DNA from: Streptomyces misionensis
GTDB taxonomy: Bacteria > Actinomycetota > Actinomycetes > Streptomycetales > Streptomycetaceae
Reading direction: 5' to 3'
Assembly: GCF_900104815.1 (NCBI RefSeq)
Contig: NZ_FNTD01000004.1
Coordinates: 3,116,501-3,180,500, forward strand
DNA: 64,000 nucleotides
The notes beneath the pieces were generated by a model that saw only the letters and a program-made list of their open reading frames with translations, had not been told where the DNA came from and ran no database searches. This document shows positions 1 through 54,469 of the stretch, one piece after another. The position numbers and the translations under genes are program-made. Positions within the stretch are counted from its first letter, which is position 1, and every line of letters begins with the position of its first letter.

Positions 1-255
1 CACCGGGCGGCGGCGGTACCGCCCCTGCTGTGCCACGGCACGGGCGACGCGGTGACCGTCCCGTCGCCGGACGGCGGCGACACCTGCGGCGGGCCCCGCT
101 GGGTGGTCGCCCCGGACGCGCGCCGGCCCTGGCTGCCGGGCCCGGAGGTGCTGCTGTGGGCGGCCGTGCGGGCGGCACGCACGGCGGTGCGGATATCGAT
201 TTTTCCTCCCGCCGACGAGGATGCTAAGGTCTACGACGTCAGCAGGCGCCGCTAG
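1..255 (+). CDS. C-terminal end of a DNA primase/polymerase-like protein (partial)
   Basis: The reading frame is open from the first base of the window and stops at TAG 253-255; only about 84 C-terminal residues are present. The visible part has a Trp-Val-Val-Ala-Pro-Asp segment, a PWLPGPEVLLWAAVRAAR helix and a basic end VYDVSRRR. From memory of the family, this resembles the C-terminus of the small bifunctional primase/polymerase proteins of Streptomyces, but the catalytic part lies outside the window, so the name is tentative. The stop codon lies inside the 5' half of the adjacent tRNA-Lys gene, so the mRNA and tRNA sequences overlap by 10 nt. Confidence 0.5.
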   Translation, partial: HRAAAVPPLLCHGTGDAVTVPSPDGGDTCGGPRWVVAPDARRPWLPGPEVLLWAAVRAARTAVRISIFPPADEDAKVYDVSRRR

Positions 256-319
256 CTCAGTTGGTTAGAGCAGCTGACTCTTAATCAGCGGGTCCGGGGT
301 TCGAGTCCCTGGCGGCGCA
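246..319 (+). tRNA. tRNA-Lys (anticodon CTT), copy 1
   Basis: A full cloverleaf can be drawn: 7-bp acceptor stem GCGCCGC/GCGGCGC with discriminator A319, D-arm, 5-bp anticodon stem GCTGA/TCAGC around loop CTCTTAA (anticodon CTT, reads AAG), and T-arm with TTCGAGT. CCA is not encoded. The 74 bases are identical to copies at 13169 and 16679. The promoter must lie within the upstream coding sequence, because the tRNA overlaps its stop codon. Confidence 0.97.
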
Positions 320-326
320 CGCGACG

Positions 327-13168: not shown

Positions 13169-13242
13169 GCGCCGCTAGCTCAGTTGGTTAGAGCAGCTGA
13201 CTCTTAATCAGCGGGTCCGGGGTTCGAGTCCCTGGCGGCGCA
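13169..13242 (+). tRNA. tRNA-Lys (anticodon CTT), copy 2
   Basis: 74 bases identical to copies 1 and 3; cloverleaf as described for copy 1, anticodon CTT. It lies between the IclR gene and the convergent polysaccharide monooxygenase gene. Confidence 0.97.
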
Positions 13243-13249
13243 CAGCAAG

Positions 13250-16678: not shown

Positions 16679-16752
16679 GCGCCGCTAGCTCAGTTGGTTA
16701 GAGCAGCTGACTCTTAATCAGCGGGTCCGGGGTTCGAGTCCCTGGCGGCGCA
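16679..16752 (+). tRNA. tRNA-Lys (anticodon CTT), copy 3
   Basis: Identical over 74 bases to copies 1 and 2. The 8 nt before it (GTCAGCAG) are also the same as before copy 1. Confidence 0.97.
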
Positions 16753-16758
16753 CCGACA

Positions 16759-37537: not shown

Positions 37538-37555
37538 CCCGACCCCACGTCCAGA

Positions 37556-37583
37556 TGTCCACACGGACGGGTGTCCACGTGGA
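37556..37583. repeat. Direct repeats upstream of the permease operon
   Basis: TGTCCACACGGA (37556-37567) and TGTCCACGTGGA (37572-37583) match at 10 of 12 positions, 16 bp apart, so they face the same side of the helix within about one and a half turns. The second contains the palindrome TCCACGTGGA. Confidence 0.6.
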
Positions 37584-37710
37584 TGTCGCTGTCGGCACCG
37601 AAGATAGCGACCGCACCTGTGCACGGGTGCCGCGCACCCCGGTACCGCCCGCGGGTGCCTGCCCCCACCGCGCCTCACGTTTGTCGGCGCCCGGCAGTAC
37701 GGTGTCCCCC

Positions 37711-38721
37711 ATGCGCCCCGACACGCCTGCCGAGAACGTCGACCACACCGCCGAAGCGGCACGCCTGGAGCGGACCGCCGGCCTGTACCCGGAGGACGCC
37801 GAGGCCCTGCTCCTGCGGGCGGCGGCCCACCTGGAGCTGTCCGGCGACCGCCCCGCGGCCACCACCCTCTACGACCGCCTGCTGTCCACCCCCGGCATCC
37901 TGGAGAACCCGTCCCTGGTGCGGGCCCTGAAGGCGGCCAACCTCTGGGAGTACGGCCATGAGGCGGAGGCCAGGGCGATCATCGAGGGCATCCGCGCCAC
38001 GGCCCCGCGCGACCCCGGCCCGTGGCTGATCGTCGCGGAGTCCCTGGAGTCCCACGACGAGCTGGAGGCGGCGGAGGACACCTTCACGGAGGCGGCGCGG
38101 CTCCTGCTGCCCGACACCCCGGAGACCCCGCTCCCCCTGCACCCCCTCCTCTACGGCCGCCACCGCGTCCGCCGCATGCGGGGCCTGCCGCACGACGACT
38201 GGGACACCCTGGCCGACACCCTGCACACCGGCCCGGTCACCCTGGACGAACTGCACGACCCGAAACGCGTCTGGTCCCTGGGCTCCGACAACCCCGCCGA
38301 GCTCCAGGCCGAGATCTCCCGCCTCCGCGCCGAACTGGGCACCTACCGCGAGGCCCTCTCCCGCCCCTTCCCGGTCGCCGTCCTGCACTGGCCGGCCCCG
38401 GAACTGGCGGAACTCCTCTCGGCCTACCCCGCCCTCGCCACGGAGTACCCCTCCCACGAGGCCCACCTCGCGACCATAGAGTCCTCCCTGCGCGAACTCT
38501 CCTCCTCCGGCACGGCCAACCTCGGCATCGTCACCGGCACCGTCCCCTCCTACGAAGCCTTCGCCGCCTCCGAGGCCACCTCCCCGGACGACCCGACCCT
38601 GCTCCCCCAATACGCCACGACCCTGGCCTCCAGGGGCCGCGCGGTGGCTTGGCCGCCGGGGGTGGGGGTGGGGTGTTGGTGCGGGTCGGAGGAGGCGTAT
38701 GAGGGGTGTCACGGCGTTTAG
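37711..38721 (+). CDS. SEC-C motif protein with TPR-like N-terminus
   Basis: 336 residues. The N-terminal half is helical and Ala/Leu-rich with tetratricopeptide-like pattern (LLLRAAAHLELSGD, ALKAANLWEYGHEAEARA). The C-terminus ends in a SEC-C zinc motif CWCGSEEAYEGCHG. SEC-C motifs mediate protein or nucleic-acid contacts, as in SecA. Probably a cytoplasmic adaptor of unknown partner. ATG 37711 has only a weak ribosome site (ACGGTG). It is the last ordinary gene before the low-GC island. Confidence 0.78.
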   Translation: MRPDTPAENVDHTAEAARLERTAGLYPEDAEALLLRAAAHLELSGDRPAATTLYDRLLSTPGILENPSLVRALKAANLWEYGHEAEARAIIEGIRATAPRDPGPWLIVAESLESHDELEAAEDTFTEAARLLLPDTPETPLPLHPLLYGRHRVRRMRGLPHDDWDTLADTLHTGPVTLDELHDPKRVWSLGSDNPAELQAEISRLRAELGTYREALSRPFPVAVLHWPAPELAELLSAYPALATEYPSHEAHLATIESSLRELSSSGTANLGIVTGTVPSYEAFAASEATSPDDPTLLPQYATTLASRGRAVAWPPGVGVGCWCGSEEAYEGCHGV

Positions 38722-38842: not shown

Positions 38843-41800
38843 GTGGCAGAGCCGATCGCGGGCGTCTACGAGAAGCTGATCACGCAGGATGTGCGCGATG
38901 AGTTGGCTCGCTTTGAGGCGGCCGGTTGGACAGCCATTGACGCCGAAGTCAGTGCCGAGTCGGCGCCCCATGTCCTGGCTCGCTACATCGGTGATGCGGT
39001 CGGGCAGAAGTTGGCCCAGCTTCCGCCCGAGGAACGCGTCAAAACGGCGAATCGCGTCCTTGAGGCGCTGGCGGCTACCAGCCCCACTGATGTGAGCACC
39101 ACGGACACGGATGCGGCGAGCACGATTGTCGATGGCCCGCGGCAACTGCTCACTTTGGCTAGGCAGGAGGCGCCAGGTGTATACACACTGCGCCCCTTGA
39201 CCCCGCTGTCCGAAACCTCGCTCATCACCAACTCCCCAGAAGATGTGAGTCTCGGCGCCGAGCTCAGGGCGGAGCTTGCTACGGCAGACCGCATCGACCT
39301 GCTCTGCGCGTTCGTGAAGTGGTACGGCATTCGCGTTCTGGAAGACTCACTACACGCGGCGCGGGAGCGTGGCGTACCGATCCGAGTGATCACGACCACG
39401 TACATCGGTGCCACCGACCGCCATGCACTCGACCGTCTGGTTCGCGACTTCGGCGCCACGGTCAAGGTCAACTATGAGATCCGCTCCACCCGGCTGCACG
39501 CTAAGGCCTGGTTGTTCAGGCGCAACACCAGCTTTGATACGGCGTACGTCGGCAGCTCCAACCTCTCGAAGGCAGCCCTTCTCGACGGCTTGGAGTGGAA
39601 TGTGCGGCTGTCGTCCGTGGCGACACCTGCGGTCCTCGACAAGTTTGAGGCGACGTTCGATGCGTACTGGAGCGATCCAGCCTTCGAGACGTACGATCCT
39701 GACATCCACGGCACTCGCCTCGATCAGGCATTGGCCCAGGCCAGCGGAGCCACCTCGGGCACGGACGTGAAGATCAGCCTTTCCGGCCTAGAAGTGCGCC
39801 CCTATCCCCACCAGCAAGACATGCTGGAACGGCTCACAGTCGAGCGGGAGTTTCGCAACCGGCATCGCAACCTCCTCGTCGCGGCGACCGGCACCGGGAA
39901 AACGGTCATGGCCGCACTGGACTACCGCAACCTGTGCCGCAAGCACGATGGTGCTGGCCGACCGACGCTGCTGTTCGTAGCCCACCGCAAGGAGATCCTC
40001 AAGCAGTCGCTTCGTACCTACCGAGAGGTGCTGGACGATGCGTCGTTTGGTGAGCTACTGCACGCAGGGCAGGACCCGCAGGAGTGGAACCACGTCTTCG
40101 CCAGCGTCCAGTCCCTCAATGTTCGGCGCCTGGAACAACTGGCTCCCCGTCACTTCGACATCATCGTCATCGACGAGTTCCACCACGCCACCGCTACCAC
40201 CTACCAGCGGGTGATCGACCACTTCACGCCGAGGGAACTGCTGGGCCTGACAGCCACCCCGGAGCGCATGGATGGGCTCAATGTGCAAGATGAGTTCTTC
40301 GAGGGGCGCATCGCCGCCGAGATGCGGCTCTGGGAAGCCCTGGAAAACGACCTGCTCTGCCCCTTCCACTACTTCGGCATCCCCGACGGCACCGATCTGA
40401 CAAATCTCGGTTGGCAGCGGGGCTCCTACACCGACCAGGACCTGGACAACCTCTACACGGGCAACGACGCGCGCGCTCGGATCGTGCTGAAGCAGATCCG
40501 AGACAAGGTCTCCCGCCCGGGCGCCATGCGGGCGCTGGGTTTCTGCGTGACCAAGGCGCACGCCCACTTTATGGCTGACTTCTTCCGGAAGGCCGGCCTC
40601 AACGCGGTGGCGCTCGACAGTGACTCACCCTCCAGCGTGCGGGCCCAGGCACTGGCTGACCTGCGGGACGGCAAGATCCAAGTCATCTTCTCCGTCGACC
40701 TGTTCAACGAGGGCCTTGATATCCCTGACGTCGACACCTTGCTGCTGCTGCGCCCCACCAACAGCGCCACCGTCTTCCTCCAGCAGCTGGGTCGAGGGCT
40801 GAGGCGAACCGAGACGAAACCCGTGCTCACGGTCCTCGATTTCATCGGACAGCACCGAGCCGAGTTCCGCTTCGAGGAGCAGTTCCGCGCACTGACCAAC
40901 CTGTCCCGCAACCGCCTCCTGGAACACATCCAGCGCGACTTCCCTCAGCTGCCGTCCGGGTGCCAAATCATCCTCGAAGGCAAGTCGAAGGACATTGTCA
41001 TCGAGAACATCCGGACCCAGCTGGGCGCCACAGTGAAGACGTTGGTGAAGGAGGTCAAGACCTATGGCACTCCACGCCTGGCCGACTACCTCCAAGAGAG
41101 CCGTCGAGAGATCAAGGAGCTCTACAAGAGCGACAACTCGTGGACGACGGTGCTGCGCCGCGCCGGCCTCATCGACGAACCGGCCTCCGCTGCGGAGGCT
41201 GCGCTCCTCAAGCGGATCCACGCCTTCCTTCACGTAGACGACCCGGAGCGTGCGGCTGCCTACCTCCGGCTGCTGCAAGACGACGCACCTGCGTACGAGG
41301 ACCTGAGTCCGACGGACCAGACGTACGCCCGCATGCTGTTCTTCAACCTGTGGGATAACGCGGGCGGCTTCACCACCTACCAGGAGGGATTGGAGTCTCT
41401 TCGTCCCCAGCGAGCCTTCCGGGACGAGCTCCGACAGGTGATTTCCCATGTCATGGATCAGGCCGACCACATCCCCCTCCCGCTGACTGGGCGCCTCAAC
41501 GAGGTGCCGCTGCGGGTGCACAGCGCCTACAACCGCTCGGAGATCCTGGCCGCACTTGGCGTCGCCCGCTTCGATGGGCAAATGCCACGATCCTTCGCGC
41601 AAGGGGTGCAATGGGTCGAGGAGCTGCAAACAGACGCCCTGCTCATCACGCTGGAAAAGAACGAGAAGGACTTCTCACCCACCATCCGCTACAAGGACTA
41701 CGCCCTGAGCCAAGAGCTCTTCCACTGGGAGTCCCAGAACGCGACAGCCGCCAACTCGCCCACCGGCCTGCGCTACCAACACCACAGAGAACGCGGCAGC

Positions 41801-41986
41801 CACGTCCTCCTCTTCATGCGGCGCTACAAGAACACCGACATCGGCAAACCTCAACCATGGATACTCCTCGGCCCCGCAACGTACGAACACCACACCGGCA
41901 GCAAGCCCATGTCCATCACCTGGCGCCTCCAGCATGACCTCCCAGCCGATGTGTGGACCTACGCGGCAATCACTGCCGCTAGTTGA
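38843..41986 (+). CDS. PLD-like nuclease / SF2 helicase / DUF3427 fusion protein
   Basis: 1047 residues. Domains in order: N-terminal helical region (1-120); phospholipase D-like nuclease domain (about 130-290) with one HxK motif RLHAKAW (H219, K221) and GSSNLSK (about 237); SF2 DEAD/DEAH helicase with Walker A ATGTGKT (about 348-354), DEFHH (about 443) and motif VI QQLGRGLRR (about 645); C-terminal DUF3427-like region (about 720-1040). Similar multidomain proteins are seen in defence or restriction islands, where the helicase moves on DNA and the PLD domain cuts. GTG 38843 follows GGGGGAG. GC is clearly lower than in flanking genes. It is followed after 38 nt by the SRA-like gene, suggesting one system. 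Confidence 0.82.
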   Translation: MAEPIAGVYEKLITQDVRDELARFEAAGWTAIDAEVSAESAPHVLARYIGDAVGQKLAQLPPEERVKTANRVLEALAATSPTDVSTTDTDAASTIVDGPRQLLTLARQEAPGVYTLRPLTPLSETSLITNSPEDVSLGAELRAELATADRIDLLCAFVKWYGIRVLEDSLHAARERGVPIRVITTTYIGATDRHALDRLVRDFGATVKVNYEIRSTRLHAKAWLFRRNTSFDTAYVGSSNLSKAALLDGLEWNVRLSSVATPAVLDKFEATFDAYWSDPAFETYDPDIHGTRLDQALAQASGATSGTDVKISLSGLEVRPYPHQQDMLERLTVEREFRNRHRNLLVAATGTGKTVMAALDYRNLCRKHDGAGRPTLLFVAHRKEILKQSLRTYREVLDDASFGELLHAGQDPQEWNHVFASVQSLNVRRLEQLAPRHFDIIVIDEFHHATATTYQRVIDHFTPRELLGLTATPERMDGLNVQDEFFEGRIAAEMRLWEALENDLLCPFHYFGIPDGTDLTNLGWQRGSYTDQDLDNLYTGNDARARIVLKQIRDKVSRPGAMRALGFCVTKAHAHFMADFFRKAGLNAVALDSDSPSSVRAQALADLRDGKIQVIFSVDLFNEGLDIPDVDTLLLLRPTNSATVFLQQLGRGLRRTETKPVLTVLDFIGQHRAEFRFEEQFRALTNLSRNRLLEHIQRDFPQLPSGCQIILEGKSKDIVIENIRTQLGATVKTLVKEVKTYGTPRLADYLQESRREIKELYKSDNSWTTVLRRAGLIDEPASAAEAALLKRIHAFLHVDDPERAAAYLRLLQDDAPAYEDLSPTDQTYARMLFFNLWDNAGGFTTYQEGLESLRPQRAFRDELRQVISHVMDQADHIPLPLTGRLNEVPLRVHSAYNRSEILAALGVARFDGQMPRSFAQGVQWVEELQTDALLITLEKNEKDFSPTIRYKDYALSQELFHWESQNATAANSPTGLRYQHHRERGSHVLLFMRRYKNTDIGKPQPWILLGPATYEHHTGSKPMSITWRLQHDLPADVWTYAAITAAS

Positions 41987-42024
41987 ACAACTCCGGTGTC
42001 AGTGCGATCAGTTAACGTCAGTGC

Positions 42025-43023
42025 ATGGGCATAGCTTCGATCGCACCTGGGCTTCTGACTACCCGAGCAGAGATGGACCAGCTGTTCGGCGGAGGGCACC
42101 AGGGAGGGATCCTCCCGTCTAAAACCACCCCAAATATCCTCATCTACGTAGACCATGACAGTGGTAAGCAGTACGGCTACGAGGATGGTTGGCTGGCAGA
42201 GGACGACGAGCTCGGGCCGATCTTCGAGTACACGGGTCAAGGCACCAGCGGAGACCAAACGTTTCTGGGGACGAAGGGGTCTCGCAACGCCGCCGTCCTG
42301 TACCACGCAGAGGCCGGAAGGGCCCTGCACGTCTTTGTGGCAGAGGGCAAGGTTCCCGGCTCAAGCTCCAGCGCCAAGCAGCAGCGGTACATCGGCGAGT
42401 TCGCCTTGGACCCCACCCTGCCTTACACCGTACGCGAGGCGCACGGAAAGGGTCAGAAACAGCGCCGCATCATCGTCTTCCGCCTGCGACCCAAGGGGGC
42501 GTTTGAGCGTCTATCCAAGGACGCCGTTACCCGCGCAGAAACGACGACTGCACATAGGGTCTTGGCGAGCGTCGCAGAGCCCAAGATGCAGGAACCCAAG
42601 CGGGTCGCCGCCAAGAAAAAACTGGTATCGGAAAGCCGACGCGCGGCTCAGCCCAGCGTCATTGCCGAGCACCGTCAATCGGAGCTTCGAGACGCATACC
42701 TAAAGAAACTCACTGCGCAAGGGCACGAGGTATGCGCCCTACAAATAAAGATCGCCAACACCACGACCACGCTCACGACCGATCTCTACGACGCCACCGC
42801 ACACGAGCTCTATTCGGTGCGGGGGGAGAGCTCCCGCGAGGAGGTGCGTGCGGCGGTAGGTCAGCTCAAAGACTACGTACGCCACCTAAGGCCGCACCCT
42901 CCCAAGTTGGTGACGCTGCTTCCAGAGAAGCCACAGGATGACTTGACGAACCTTCTTCACACAGAAGAGATCGATCTAGTTTTCCGAGACGGTAGCGCTT
43001 ACACGCGCTGCACAGCGAAGTAG
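42025..43023 (+). CDS. SRA-like modified-DNA reader with degenerate PD-(D/E)XK domain
   Basis: 332 residues. The N-terminal half (about 15-155) has FGGGHQGGILPSKTTPN, QRYIGEFALDP and IIVFRLRP, a pattern of the SRA/YDG-like domains of type IV and HNH restriction proteins that bind modified bases. The C-terminal domain (about 215-325) resembles restriction nucleases with LTTDLYD (about 250-256) and REEVRAAVGQLKDY, but where active relatives have E-A-K this protein has S-V-R (about 265-267), so cleavage may be lost or changed. ATG 42025 has no ribosome site; two GTCAGTGC repeats (41998, 42017) precede it. Confidence 0.7.
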   Translation: MGIASIAPGLLTTRAEMDQLFGGGHQGGILPSKTTPNILIYVDHDSGKQYGYEDGWLAEDDELGPIFEYTGQGTSGDQTFLGTKGSRNAAVLYHAEAGRALHVFVAEGKVPGSSSSAKQQRYIGEFALDPTLPYTVREAHGKGQKQRRIIVFRLRPKGAFERLSKDAVTRAETTTAHRVLASVAEPKMQEPKRVAAKKKLVSESRRAAQPSVIAEHRQSELRDAYLKKLTAQGHEVCALQIKIANTTTTLTTDLYDATAHELYSVRGESSREEVRAAVGQLKDYVRHLRPHPPKLVTLLPEKPQDDLTNLLHTEEIDLVFRDGSAYTRCTAK

Positions 43024-43032
43024 GCGGTGGTT

Positions 43033-43986
43033 ATGGCGACCTCACCGGAACATGAATACCTTTCGAATGCCGCGCTCCGCATCATGGAGAGTGCATCGAA
43101 CTCTGGCCTCTTTGGTTACACCGAAGGCCAACGCAAGCTTTTTGATTTCTCCTGCGACCTCAAGAAGGATTGGTCAAAGGTAGTCGTAGGGCAGACACTA
43201 TGGAAGCACGATGGCGACGGCATCGACAAAGACGTTAGGACACTCCTTAACGAGCGGGATGTCGCAGCCGCTGTTTATATAGCGCGCCACAAAAGCCGTC
43301 TTCGGTCACGCTTCGCCGAGGTGACACAGTCTTATCTCGACACGCCCATGCGAGATCGACTGTCCCGCTTGCGCGTCTTCTGGGTCCCGGCGGATTTCAG
43401 CACCACCGATGAAGAAGTCGTAGCATCGACCTATAGAGCCTTGCAGGAGGAGATCACGCGTGACCTCCTCCTGCAAGTTACCCTCGGCGGGCTGACGCCG
43501 CGGGATGTCATCCGATTCGCATCCTCCAGGCGCCCCGGCCTCCCGATCGCCATCCTTTCGCACATAAAGGCGAACGGTCATCGCAGCCACAAAAGCACGG
43601 CAACGGCGCTAGGCCAAACCTCTGGCCCCGTAGGGTACGAAACCGACCGTCTCTTCATGACAGGTTTCCTGGAAAGCGAAAGTCTGCAGGGTGGCGTATA
43701 CAGAATCACCGCGAGCGGCCTGGCGATGCTCGACATCTGCTCACGCCTGCGCGATTACCTCAACGGCAACCTCGGCGAGGAAAACAAAAATGCGCACCTC
43801 GAGTATATATGCAGCTTGTTGGGCATCGACTATCCGTCAATACCCATCGACACTCCTCTCATAGGAGAGGACGTCGTACACCAACTACAAAACCCCACCT
43901 TCCTTCTTCTGCAGCATGTAGCCCAAGCTGATTCAGAAGGCTCTGTCGATTGGCCTGCTCCGTACTTCGCCTTGCCGTCGAATTAG
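43033..43986 (+). CDS. Unrecognised protein of the island, winged-helix-like C-terminal part
   Basis: 317 residues; I do not recognise the family. The N-terminal 120 residues mix alpha and beta with a FDFSCDLKKDWSKVVVGQ segment. Residues about 175-235 (ILSHIKANGHRSHKSTA... then GVYRITASGLAMLDI) look like a winged helix. The gene follows the SRA-like gene by 9 nt and has the lowest GC in the window, with many A/T-ending codons. GTG 43027 is an alternative start. A near-perfect 36-bp palindrome (43441-43476) lies within it and is translated as LQEEITRDLLLQ. Confidence 0.6.
   Translation: MATSPEHEYLSNAALRIMESASNSGLFGYTEGQRKLFDFSCDLKKDWSKVVVGQTLWKHDGDGIDKDVRTLLNERDVAAAVYIARHKSRLRSRFAEVTQSYLDTPMRDRLSRLRVFWVPADFSTTDEEVVASTYRALQEEITRDLLLQVTLGGLTPRDVIRFASSRRPGLPIAILSHIKANGHRSHKSTATALGQTSGPVGYETDRLFMTGFLESESLQGGVYRITASGLAMLDICSRLRDYLNGNLGEENKNAHLEYICSLLGIDYPSIPIDTPLIGEDVVHQLQNPTFLLLQHVAQADSEGSVDWPAPYFALPSN
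43441..43476. repeat. 36-bp near-perfect palindrome inside a coding sequence
   Basis: Arms TTGCAGGAGGAGATCACG and CGTGACCTCCTCCTGCAA pair over 18 bp with a single mismatch and no loop. Both strands translate to almost the same peptide (LQEE[I/V]TRDLLLQ). Confidence 0.95.
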
Positions 43987-44011
43987 CCTGCCCGGCACAC
44001 GGCCGGGCAGG
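43987..44011. terminator. Hairpin closing the island operon
   Basis: 9-bp stem CCTGCCCGG / CCGGGCAGG with a 7-nt loop directly after the stop codon of the third island gene and 4 nt before the convergent DUF2267 stop. Confidence 0.8.
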
Positions 44012-44014
44012 TCA

Positions 44015-44671
44015 TCACAGGGCTGCGGAGGAGCTGGCCGTCGTCACCAGCTCCGCCCTCCCGAACAGCAGCGCGTACCCCGGCGGGAGTTGGGCCAGGA
44101 TGCGGGTGGTCAGGGAGGTGCCGATGGTCTGGGCGAGGGTGCTCAGGACCGAGCTGACGTCCCAGCGGGCCGTGGCCGGGGTCGCGCCCTCGATGCGGGT
44201 GGCTATCGACTCCACGAACTCGCGTGCCGTCAGCGGGTGGGTCGCCGGGATCTGGGCGGCGATCACCCGGCCGGCCTCGCGGGGCAGGGCCTGGGCCAGG
44301 GCGACGCGTTCGTCGCCGGTCACATGGCCACCGAGGGCCGACAGGACGATGCGGGTGACGCGCTCGGCCTCCGCCCGTGTCGTGTACTGACCCACCTCGC
44401 GGACGGACTCGGTCAGTTCCTGCCAGCGGGCCGAGTCGGTGGTTCCCCGCTTCGTCGCCGTCTCGGTGGTTCCCCGATTCGGCACCGTCTCGGCCAGTCC
44501 CGGCTTCGGCGCCGTCCCGGTGGTTCCCCGCTTCGGCGCCGTCGCGGTGGTTCCCCGCTTCGTCACCGCCTCGGCGGTTCCCCGATTCGGCGCCGTCTCA
44601 ACAGTTCCCGGCTTCGTCGCCGCCTCTGCGGTTCTCGGCTTCGTCAGCGTCGTGGTCGCCGTCGTCGTCAT
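44015..44671 (-). CDS. DUF2267 protein with Thr/Lys-rich repeat N-terminus
   Basis: 218 residues. The C-terminal about 130 residues form a DUF2267 domain (WQELTESVREVGQYTTRAEA start, EFVESIATRIEG middle, LLFGRAEL end). The N-terminal about 75 residues are a low-complexity repeat of about 10 residues with KRGTT or NRGTT cores, probably disordered. DUF2267 proteins often cluster with small heat-shock and dormancy genes, and here Hsp18 lies upstream on the same strand. ATG 44671 is preferred because AGGAG stands 8 nt before it; ATG 44677 is too close. Confidence 0.75.
   Translation of the reverse strand: MTTTATTTLTKPRTAEAATKPGTVETAPNRGTAEAVTKRGTTATAPKRGTTGTAPKPGLAETVPNRGTTETATKRGTTDSARWQELTESVREVGQYTTRAEAERVTRIVLSALGGHVTGDERVALAQALPREAGRVIAAQIPATHPLTAREFVESIATRIEGATPATARWDVSSVLSTLAQTIGTSLTTRILAQLPPGYALLFGRAELVTTASSSAAL
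44433..44640. repeat. About 30-bp degenerate tandem repeat coding region
   Basis: Repeated blocks such as CGGTGGTTCCCCGCTTCG recur about every 30 bp (six to seven units), encoding the RGTT-type repeats of the DUF2267 protein. Confidence 0.85.
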
Positions 44672-44901
44672 CGTCATGGCTCCTTTCCGGGGCACGTCGG
44701 GCGGTGCCGGGGGTCCGGTAGATCCAGTGGTTCGGTACCCCGCCGGGGCGCCGGCCGACCGGGACGGGTGGGCAGTACCCGGGGCCGAACGGCAGGGGGC
44801 GGGCGGGGCCCGGGGGCCCGCCCACCGGCCGGGGCGGTGAGCGGGGCCGTCTCCGGGTGCCTCACCGGAACCGGCCCCGCTCACCGCCCCGTGGGCGTGC
44901 G

Positions 44902-45327
44902 TCAGCCGCTGATCTGCTTGCGGGAGTCCGATCCGCCGGTGATCTGGATGCGGCGGGGCTTGGCCTGTTCGGCCACCGGGATGCGCAGGGTCAGCACGCC
45001 GGACTCGTACGAGGCGTCGATGCGGTCCGTGTCGAGCGTGTCGCCGAGGAAGAGCTGGCGGGTGAAGCTGCCCGTGGGCCGCTCGGCCACCAGCACCTCC
45101 GCGCCCTCAGGGGCGGGGCTGCGGCGCTCGGCGCGGACGTTGAGGACGTTGCGTTCGACGTCCAGCTCGATCGTCTCGGGGTCGATGCCCGGCAGGTCGA
45201 AATGGACCAGGAAGTCGTCGCCTGCCCGGTAGGCGTCCATCGGCATCGCGGACGGGCGGGCGGTGTTGCCGAGGACCTGCTGCGCGAGTCGGTCGAATTC
45301 GCGGAACGGGTCGGTGCGCATGAGCAT
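44902..45327 (-). CDS. Hsp20/Hsp18-family small heat-shock protein
   Basis: 141 residues: N-terminal MLMRTDPFREFDRLAQQVLG, alpha-crystallin domain (about 40-130) with FLVHFDLPGIDPETIELDVE, ASYESGVLTLRIPV near the end. It binds unfolding proteins and delays aggregation. Actinomycete Hsp18 proteins have this start. A near-consensus promoter (TTGTCA-N17-TATATA, 45379-45407) lies 52 bp upstream. No CIRCE or HAIR repressor site was seen. Confidence 0.92.
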   Translation of the reverse strand: MLMRTDPFREFDRLAQQVLGNTARPSAMPMDAYRAGDDFLVHFDLPGIDPETIELDVERNVLNVRAERRSPAPEGAEVLVAERPTGSFTRQLFLGDTLDTDRIDASYESGVLTLRIPVAEQAKPRRIQITGGSDSRKQISG

Positions 45328-45378
45328 CACAGGTCACTCCTCTCTTCAGGCGCTGGGGTGCGATGCCCTACGGCTTCT

Positions 45379-54358: not shown

Positions 54359-54389
54359 TTGTCGTGCTTTTGCTAGCTTCGGAGGTGAG

Positions 54390-54432
54390 CCCGACGAGAC
54401 GCGCCGTACCGGGATGCAGGCAAAGACGACGC
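54390..54432 (+). promoter_or_regulatory. Guanidine-III riboswitch (ykkC-III)
   Basis: The sequence from 54390 to 54432 follows the known guanidine-III aptamer closely: CCCGACGAG, then GCGCCGTACCGGG, then GGCAAAGACGACGC. CCCG (54390-54393) pairs with CGGG (54410-54413) and the ACGAG and GACGAC elements build the pseudoknot-type ligand pocket. It ends 37 nt before an SMR exporter gene. CGTCGT (54445-54450) could pair with GACGACG as an alternative, linking ligand binding to access of the CGGAGG ribosome site (54457-54462). Confidence 0.9.
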
Positions 54433-54469
54433 ACCGCGGAGAAACGTCGTTCGTCTCGGAGGTGCCGTC

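What the first reader, a model, noticed from the sequence alone, without database searches (positions are those of the whole stretch)
38843..43986. Three-gene low-GC island that may be an undescribed type IV-like restriction or defence system
Seen: three consecutive same-strand genes (gaps 38 and 9 nt) with clearly lower GC and A/T-ending codons, bounded by ordinary genes and closed by a hairpin. They encode a PLD + SF2 helicase + DUF3427 protein, an SRA-like reader with a PD-(D/E)XK-like domain, and an unknown protein with a winged-helix-like part. Known: SRA-like domains read modified bases, PLD domains can be nucleases (as in BfiI), and SF2 helicases translocate DNA in restriction systems. 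Inference: the set recognises modified foreign DNA through the second protein and cuts it with the first; the third could regulate or be an effector.
Basis: partly seen in the sequence, partly recalled or inferred. Interest (0 to 1): 0.75.

Follow-up and report, generated by a model that had tools for sequence, protein, structure and literature searches.

The report
Restriction enzyme with dead-nuclease reader module
A low-GC cassette in a Streptomyces chromosome pairs a known kind of enzyme that shreds DNA carrying modified cytosine with two extra proteins, a modified-base reader that has lost its own cutting site and an uncharacterised nuclease-like partner, and so looks like an undescribed accessory module of a familiar defence.

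Summary
The three genes, the GC drop and the closing hairpin are real. Gene A is not new: it is a full-length SauUSI-type (type IV) restriction enzyme with PLD nuclease, SF2 motor and its own SRA/DUF3427 reader. In 73 of 91 A-bearing Streptomyces genomes no B was found beside it. Gene B is an SRA reader fused to a PD-(D/E)XK domain whose catalytic Glu and Lys are replaced by Ser264 and Arg266. Gene C matched no family; its model pairs a PaqCI-like endonuclease fold with a MarR-type winged helix. B and C pair closely: all 13 distinct full-length B with a neighbouring C have lost the cutting residues, against 1 of 44 B with neither A nor C seen nearby. A second lineage (A then B, no C) lost the site separately. 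B-C also occurs in a draft genome without detectable A, and distant C homologues stand without A or B. The cassette sits in a hotspot that elsewhere holds A alone or SRA-HNH enzymes. Best reading: a self-sufficient type IV enzyme plus a split module in which B reads modified DNA and C acts. C lacks the canonical catalytic Lys, so whether C cuts is open. New variant of a known kind; untested experimentally.

The parts
38843..41986 (+). Gene A: SauUSI-type (type IV) restriction enzyme, 1047 aa
   Evidence: Pfam PLDc_2, ResIII, Helicase_C, DUF3427; PADLOC PDLC03659 mREase_IV 1869.9 bits; PDB 7clg SauUSI 279 bits
39341..39670 (+). A: PLD nuclease domain (residues 167-276), H219, K221, S238, N240, E251
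   Evidence: these five residues identical in 154 of 154 aligned A proteins
39794..40804 (+). A: SF2 motor (residues 318-654)
   Evidence: Walker A Lys and Walker B Asp/Glu in 154 of 154
41312..41965 (+). A: DUF3427 / SRA-type reader (residues 824-1041); D952 and W962 align with SauUSI D858 and W868
   Evidence: both residues in 153 of 154, one gap
42025..43023 (+). Gene B: SRA reader fused to a PD-(D/E)XK domain that lacks its catalytic residues, 332 aa
   Evidence: relatives carry PF26348, named ScoMcrA-like SRA by a source; model m3112035706bb, pLDDT 78; folds
42025..42519 (+). B: SRA domain (residues 1-165)
42673..43014 (+). B: PD-(D/E)XK fold (residues 217-330); D253, Q280, Y284 kept
42814..42822 (+). 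B: lost catalytic E-x-K, here Ser264-Val-Arg266
43027..43986 (+). Gene C: no family matched; start probably ATG 43033
   Evidence: no Pfam, NCBIfam or PADLOC match for the window protein that is significant; homologues; model m606212e10266, pLDDT 82.6
43030..43482 (+). C: PaqCI-like endonuclease fold (residues 2-152); R36, D40, C43, Q56, H61, K68, D69, R71, E98 conserved
43519..43776 (+). C: MarR-type winged helix (about residues 165-250)
43987..44011 (+). Hairpin after C, 10-bp stem, no T-run
   Evidence: read
37555..38721 (+). Hotspot left border: TPR/SEC-C-like gene (f4), ordinary GC
   Evidence: weak TPR/SEC-C hits; within the stretch in 28 of 35 A-bearing loci examined
44015..45330 (-). 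Hotspot right border: DUF2267 gene and Hsp20-like gene
   Evidence: DUF2267; same order in L067, L070, L074, L089, L094, L149, L150; the name Hsp20 is recalled, not from a call

Best explanation
The cassette is a modification-dependent (type IV) restriction locus made of two parts. A is a complete SauUSI-type enzyme: its C-terminal SRA (DUF3427) finds modified cytosine, the SF2 motor translocates, and dimeric PLD domains cut. This is inferred from the solved and assayed homologue; domains and active-site residues are shown here. B and C are a split accessory unit: B binds modified cytosine with its SRA and no longer cuts, because its PD-(D/E)XK residues are lost; C adds sequence-type DNA binding through its winged helix and is the acting partner through its PaqCI-like N-terminal domain. 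Shown: domain anatomy, B's catalytic loss and its association with C, pairing of B with C, and conservation of C's own residues also in stand-alone relatives. Inferred: that B and C bind each other, that B still binds modified DNA, and that C cuts or otherwise acts on what B finds.
For: A: full-length match to type IV models and to SauUSI, active-site and reader residues identical in 153-154 of 154. B: SRA and PD-(D/E)XK folds; of 72 distinct full-length B, 13 of 13 with C adjacent are dead, 7 of 8 with A upstream and no C are dead, 0 of 7 with A downstream or divergent are dead, 1 of 44 with neither is dead. Partly independent check by shared contig length: 37 of 67 dead B share a contig length with a C, 0 of 52 intact B do (120 listed of 211 B hits). 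In 82-row trees without the motif columns the loss needs at least 3 changes, and putting all dead B in one clade is rejected (p-AU 0.003) while the two C-bearing clades may be one (0.248). SRA signature stays invariant in 25 of 25. B-C without A: S. benahoarensis, L095, no A at E<=1e-60 in that genome. C residues R36, D40, C43, Q56, H61, K68, D69, R71 hold in at least 103 of 106 rows, trio and stand-alone alike.
Against: C lacks the canonical Lys: PaqCI uses D54, E73, K75 (passages), and by eye C offers D40, Gln56 and Leu58; I could not superpose the structures. Foldseek itself gave no significant match for C (best E 0.057); the PaqCI match is from the second aligner, rmsd 4.6 A, 7% identity. 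Dead B also occurs with A but without C (7 of 8), which C cannot explain. L114 keeps an intact B directly downstream of A. The association rests on few evolutionary events. No interaction or activity was measured.
Confidence: 0.45

Rival explanations
1. B and C are accessory subunits of A: B adds a second modified-base reader and C a DNA-binding handle that steer or anchor A, the only canonical nuclease of the cassette.
For: A lies upstream on the same strand in 12 of 13 B-C loci, with A-B gaps of 39-43 nt in those measured by ORF; a separate A-B lineage without C also lost B's site (7 of 8; p-AU 0.003); A's nuclease residues are invariant.
Against: A stands without adjacent B in 73 of 91 Streptomyces genomes and in most class-level genomes (42 of 296 with A; 20 of 296 with B); B-C exists where no A was found; in A-B loci without C the gap is 0.7-2.6 kb.
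Confidence: 0.3
2. C is mainly a transcription regulator of the cassette (winged helix), and B a modification sensor feeding it.
Against: The N-terminal domain is the best conserved part of C and matches an endonuclease domain, not a ligand-binding regulator; C is the last gene of the cassette.
Confidence: 0.15
3. B and C are passengers or decaying relics beside a working A.
For: Low GC and hotspot location; B's catalytic loss; a fragmentary A-B in L096.
Against: Intact ORFs and 60-94% identical homologues in many species, invariant SRA signature, invariant polar residues in C.
Confidence: 0.1

Closest known systems
SauUSI (Staphylococcus aureus; PDB 7CLG)
   Same: Gene A has the same order: PLD nuclease, SF2 motor, C-terminal SRA/DUF3427; catalytic H, K, S, N, E and reader Asp/Trp align (passages of PMC7913695)
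   Different: The position of SauUSI Glu126 in its HxKx4E motif is Arg here (153 of 154; Lys in 1); SauUSI works as a single polypeptide (PMC3874153 passage), whereas here B and C follow in the same cassette
ScoA3I (SCO2863) of Streptomyces coelicolor
   Same: Listed beside SauUSI with in vivo restriction of m5C DNA (PMC3874153 Table 1 passage); SCO2863 is a putative helicase in a 65.9% GC islet absent from S. lividans (PMC1934918 passages). Probably the tested Streptomyces relative of A
ScoMcrA SRA domain (5zmn, 5zmm) and SRA-HNH enzymes (TagI, ScoA3IV)
   Different: B is fused to a PD-(D/E)XK domain, not HNH, and that domain has lost its catalytic pair
MspJI-type SRA-like + PD-(D/E)XK enzymes
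   Different: rmsd is 13.9 A, i.e. domains agree but not their arrangement; B lacks the catalytic residues
PaqCI N-terminal endonuclease domain (8epx, 8em1)
   Different: 7-8% identity; C keeps the Asp but not Glu73/Lys75 equivalents by eye; PaqCI is a sequence-specific Type IIS enzyme (passages)

Membership tests
SauUSI-type type IV restriction enzyme (gene A) | PLD + SF2 + DUF3427/SRA in one chain | tested here: met
SauUSI-type type IV restriction enzyme (gene A) | Conserved PLD catalytic residues | tested here: met
   H219, K221, S238, N240, E251 in 154 of 154; the Glu126 position is Arg
SauUSI-type type IV restriction enzyme (gene A) | ATP-dependent cleavage of 5mC/5hmC DNA | not testable with these tools
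   needs enzyme assays
ScoA3I (SCO2863) | Orthology by sequence | not tested
   SCO2863 sequence not obtained; PADLOC model origin not shown
SRA-nuclease modification-dependent endonuclease (gene B) | SRA fold | tested here: met
SRA-nuclease modification-dependent endonuclease (gene B) | Active nuclease site | tested here: not met
   Ser264, Arg266 in place of Glu, Lys
PD-(D/E)XK nuclease of PaqCI type (gene C) | Fold | tested here: inconclusive
PD-(D/E)XK nuclease of PaqCI type (gene C) | D...(D/E)xK triad | tested here: inconclusive
   D40 and Gln56 invariant or nearly so, no Lys two residues on; correspondence judged by eye

The most novel reading that the evidence does not exclude
B-C is a new two-subunit modification-dependent system: a reader whose own nuclease has been switched off and a new nuclease family (C, with an unorthodox site built on D40, Gln56, His61, Lys68, Arg71) that has taken over, and which in other actinobacteria works with other partners or alone.
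Probability: 0.35. Interest if true: 0.65.

Novelty: new variant of a known kind. Interest (0 to 1): 0.5.

Why it matters
Type IV enzymes are a main barrier to moving DNA into Streptomyces. If B-C works as read here, it shows a reader-nuclease enzyme being split and its cutting handed to a partner, at least twice tied to neighbouring nucleases, and it adds an unnamed candidate nuclease family (C). The hotspot gives a simple way to find further modification-dependent systems: look between the TPR/SEC-C gene and the DUF2267/Hsp20-like pair.

Tried and rejected
Rejected: that A is new; that B cuts; that the trio is a chance neighbourhood.

Corrected on the way: the ORF-based table misplaced A relative to B in L091 and L114, because open-frame starts were overlong; one search repeats it with domain coordinates and replaces it, and my notebook entry is superseded. 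A printed remark that C numbering is shifted by 2 is wrong; numbering is from the GTG. Dropped rows: B fragments (such as L096, dead motif, beside C) are not among the 72; six long-branch rows were left out of the 82-row tree (L117, L119, L121, L122, L140, L141); 16 database B rows in the trees were picked by hand. Some B loci were read with only about 1.5 kb of flank; for those Streptomyces genomes A and C were looked for, but for class-level genomes C was not searched. The clades tested by AU were named after a first tree was seen. Gene calls come from a simple caller of my own.

Led nowhere: plasmids hold no close copy of C (1 record, 33.7% identity, Agrobacterium) and only B relatives of 27-38% (14 records); a larger genus draw found the same 8 C genomes; promoter scan 0. 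Fold families not listed by the second aligner are not excluded. Nine paper searches ran in open-access PMC only; DUF3427 occurs in 2 papers there, and none of the passages I read describes a DUF3427-SRA-C trio.
Full report
What is there. The window lies in a Streptomyces-type genome of 8.47 Mb (the closest homologues of all three proteins are from S. misionensis, 94-97% identical). Three same-strand genes, A (38843-41986), B (42025-43023) and C (43027 or more likely 43033 to 43986), stand out by composition and end at a 10-bp hairpin.

Gene A. Pfam finds PLDc_2, ResIII, Helicase_C and DUF3427. PADLOC's type IV model PDLC03659 matches residues 102-1046 with 1869.9 bits, and SauUSI (7clg) residues 141-675 with 279 bits in all. 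Comparing coordinates, 18 of the 91 have a B within about 3 kb and 73 do not. A is thus a known, self-sufficient kind of enzyme. A review (PMC3874153, passages) lists ScoA3I, Sco2863, next to SauUSI as restricting m5C in vivo, and PMC1934918 (passages) calls SCO2863 a putative helicase in a low-GC islet; that A is its orthologue is likely but untested.

The loss follows the neighbours. Among 72 distinct full-length B from genome loci: with C downstream, 13 of 13 dead (12 also have A upstream; 1, L095, has no A); with A upstream but no C, 7 of 8 dead (exception L114); with A downstream or divergent, 0 of 7 dead; with neither nearby, 1 of 44 dead (L141, a distant row). From the protein database, 37 of 67 dead B share a contig length with some C, and none of 52 intact B does (an indirect sign; 120 of 211 B hits listed). 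On a tree of 82 B built without the motif columns the state changes 3 times. The window clade and the Q-x-K clade, both with C, may be one (p-AU 0.248); adding the A-then-B clade is rejected (p-AU 0.003; the clades were named after a first tree). So there are at least two losses, one tied to C and one to A without C. Rows near the base of the window clade have lost Glu but keep Lys, so Glu seems to go first. The SRA signature is invariant in 25 of 25 aligned B. The number of independent events is small, and shared descent carries much of the count.

Distribution of C. In 295 Streptomyces genomes C occurs in 8, in 5 as A-B-C; the other 3 have no A or B next to it. A draw of 392 genomes found the same 8. 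Of 21 loci in named genomes, 10 hold close C (52-90% identity): 7 with intact-length A or B upstream as A-B-C or A-(B)-C, one (L096) with broken A and B, one (L095) B-C without A, one (L088) cut by the contig end; one (L105) is a fragment; 10 hold distant C (32-42%) without A or B in the stretch. Of the 11 genomes of L095 and the distant C, 1 has A and 2 have B at the limits used. Neighbours of stand-alone C include an nSTAND3-Mrr protein (PADLOC candidate PDC-S73, Frankia), an HNH protein, and on an Agrobacterium plasmid a PD-(D/E)XK/UvrD pair; many others are ordinary or unknown, so defence enrichment is suggestive, not shown.

Hotspot. The same TPR/SEC-C-like gene lies in the stretch of 28 of 35 A-bearing loci, and the DUF2267/Hsp20-like pair bounds several on the other side. 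Between them other genomes hold A alone, A with an SRA-HNH enzyme (G020), or an SRA-HNH enzyme and no A (G003). Several forms of modification-dependent restriction thus use one site.

Interpretation. A reads and shreds modified DNA by itself (inferred from SauUSI). B-C is an added reader-plus-partner unit in which B has stopped cutting. I favour C as the acting partner (0.45) over B-C as subunits of A (0.3), because B-C persists without A and C's conserved residues hold where B is absent; the A-B lineage without C and C's missing Lys speak against. The A part is already known; B-C as a unit is not described in the passages I read or found by the searches named above.

Noticed in passing
window 246-320, 13169-13243, 16679-16754: Three tRNA-Lys (CTT) genes with the same Rfam score within 17 kb; could be duplicated attachment sites of integrated elements.
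   Followed up: no
window 54371-54435: Guanidine-III riboswitch (38.2 bits).
   Followed up: no
L062-L065, L076, L077: Intact B next to a divergently placed DUF6602 protein with NucC/PD-(D/E)XK-like PADLOC matches, with A in four of these six loci: another B partnership.
   Followed up: partly
L054-L059, L066: A, a 0.7-2.6 kb spacer with short or opposite-strand ORFs, then a B dead at the Lys position.
   Followed up: partly
L149, L150, L073: SRA-HNH enzyme in the same hotspot, with A (L150, L073) or without (L149).
   Followed up: partly
L072 11265-12740: 491-aa protein with a weak B match (20 bits) beside A, ending in an HNH-like stretch by eye.
   Followed up: no
L096; L091: Broken A and B upstream of C in S. 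afghaniensis (L096), and an A frame running past its usual end in S. violaceus (L091).
   Followed up: no
L102 7522-11053: Frankia: nSTAND3 protein with Mrr_cat domain directly upstream of a distant C, both low GC3; possible other C system.
   Followed up: partly
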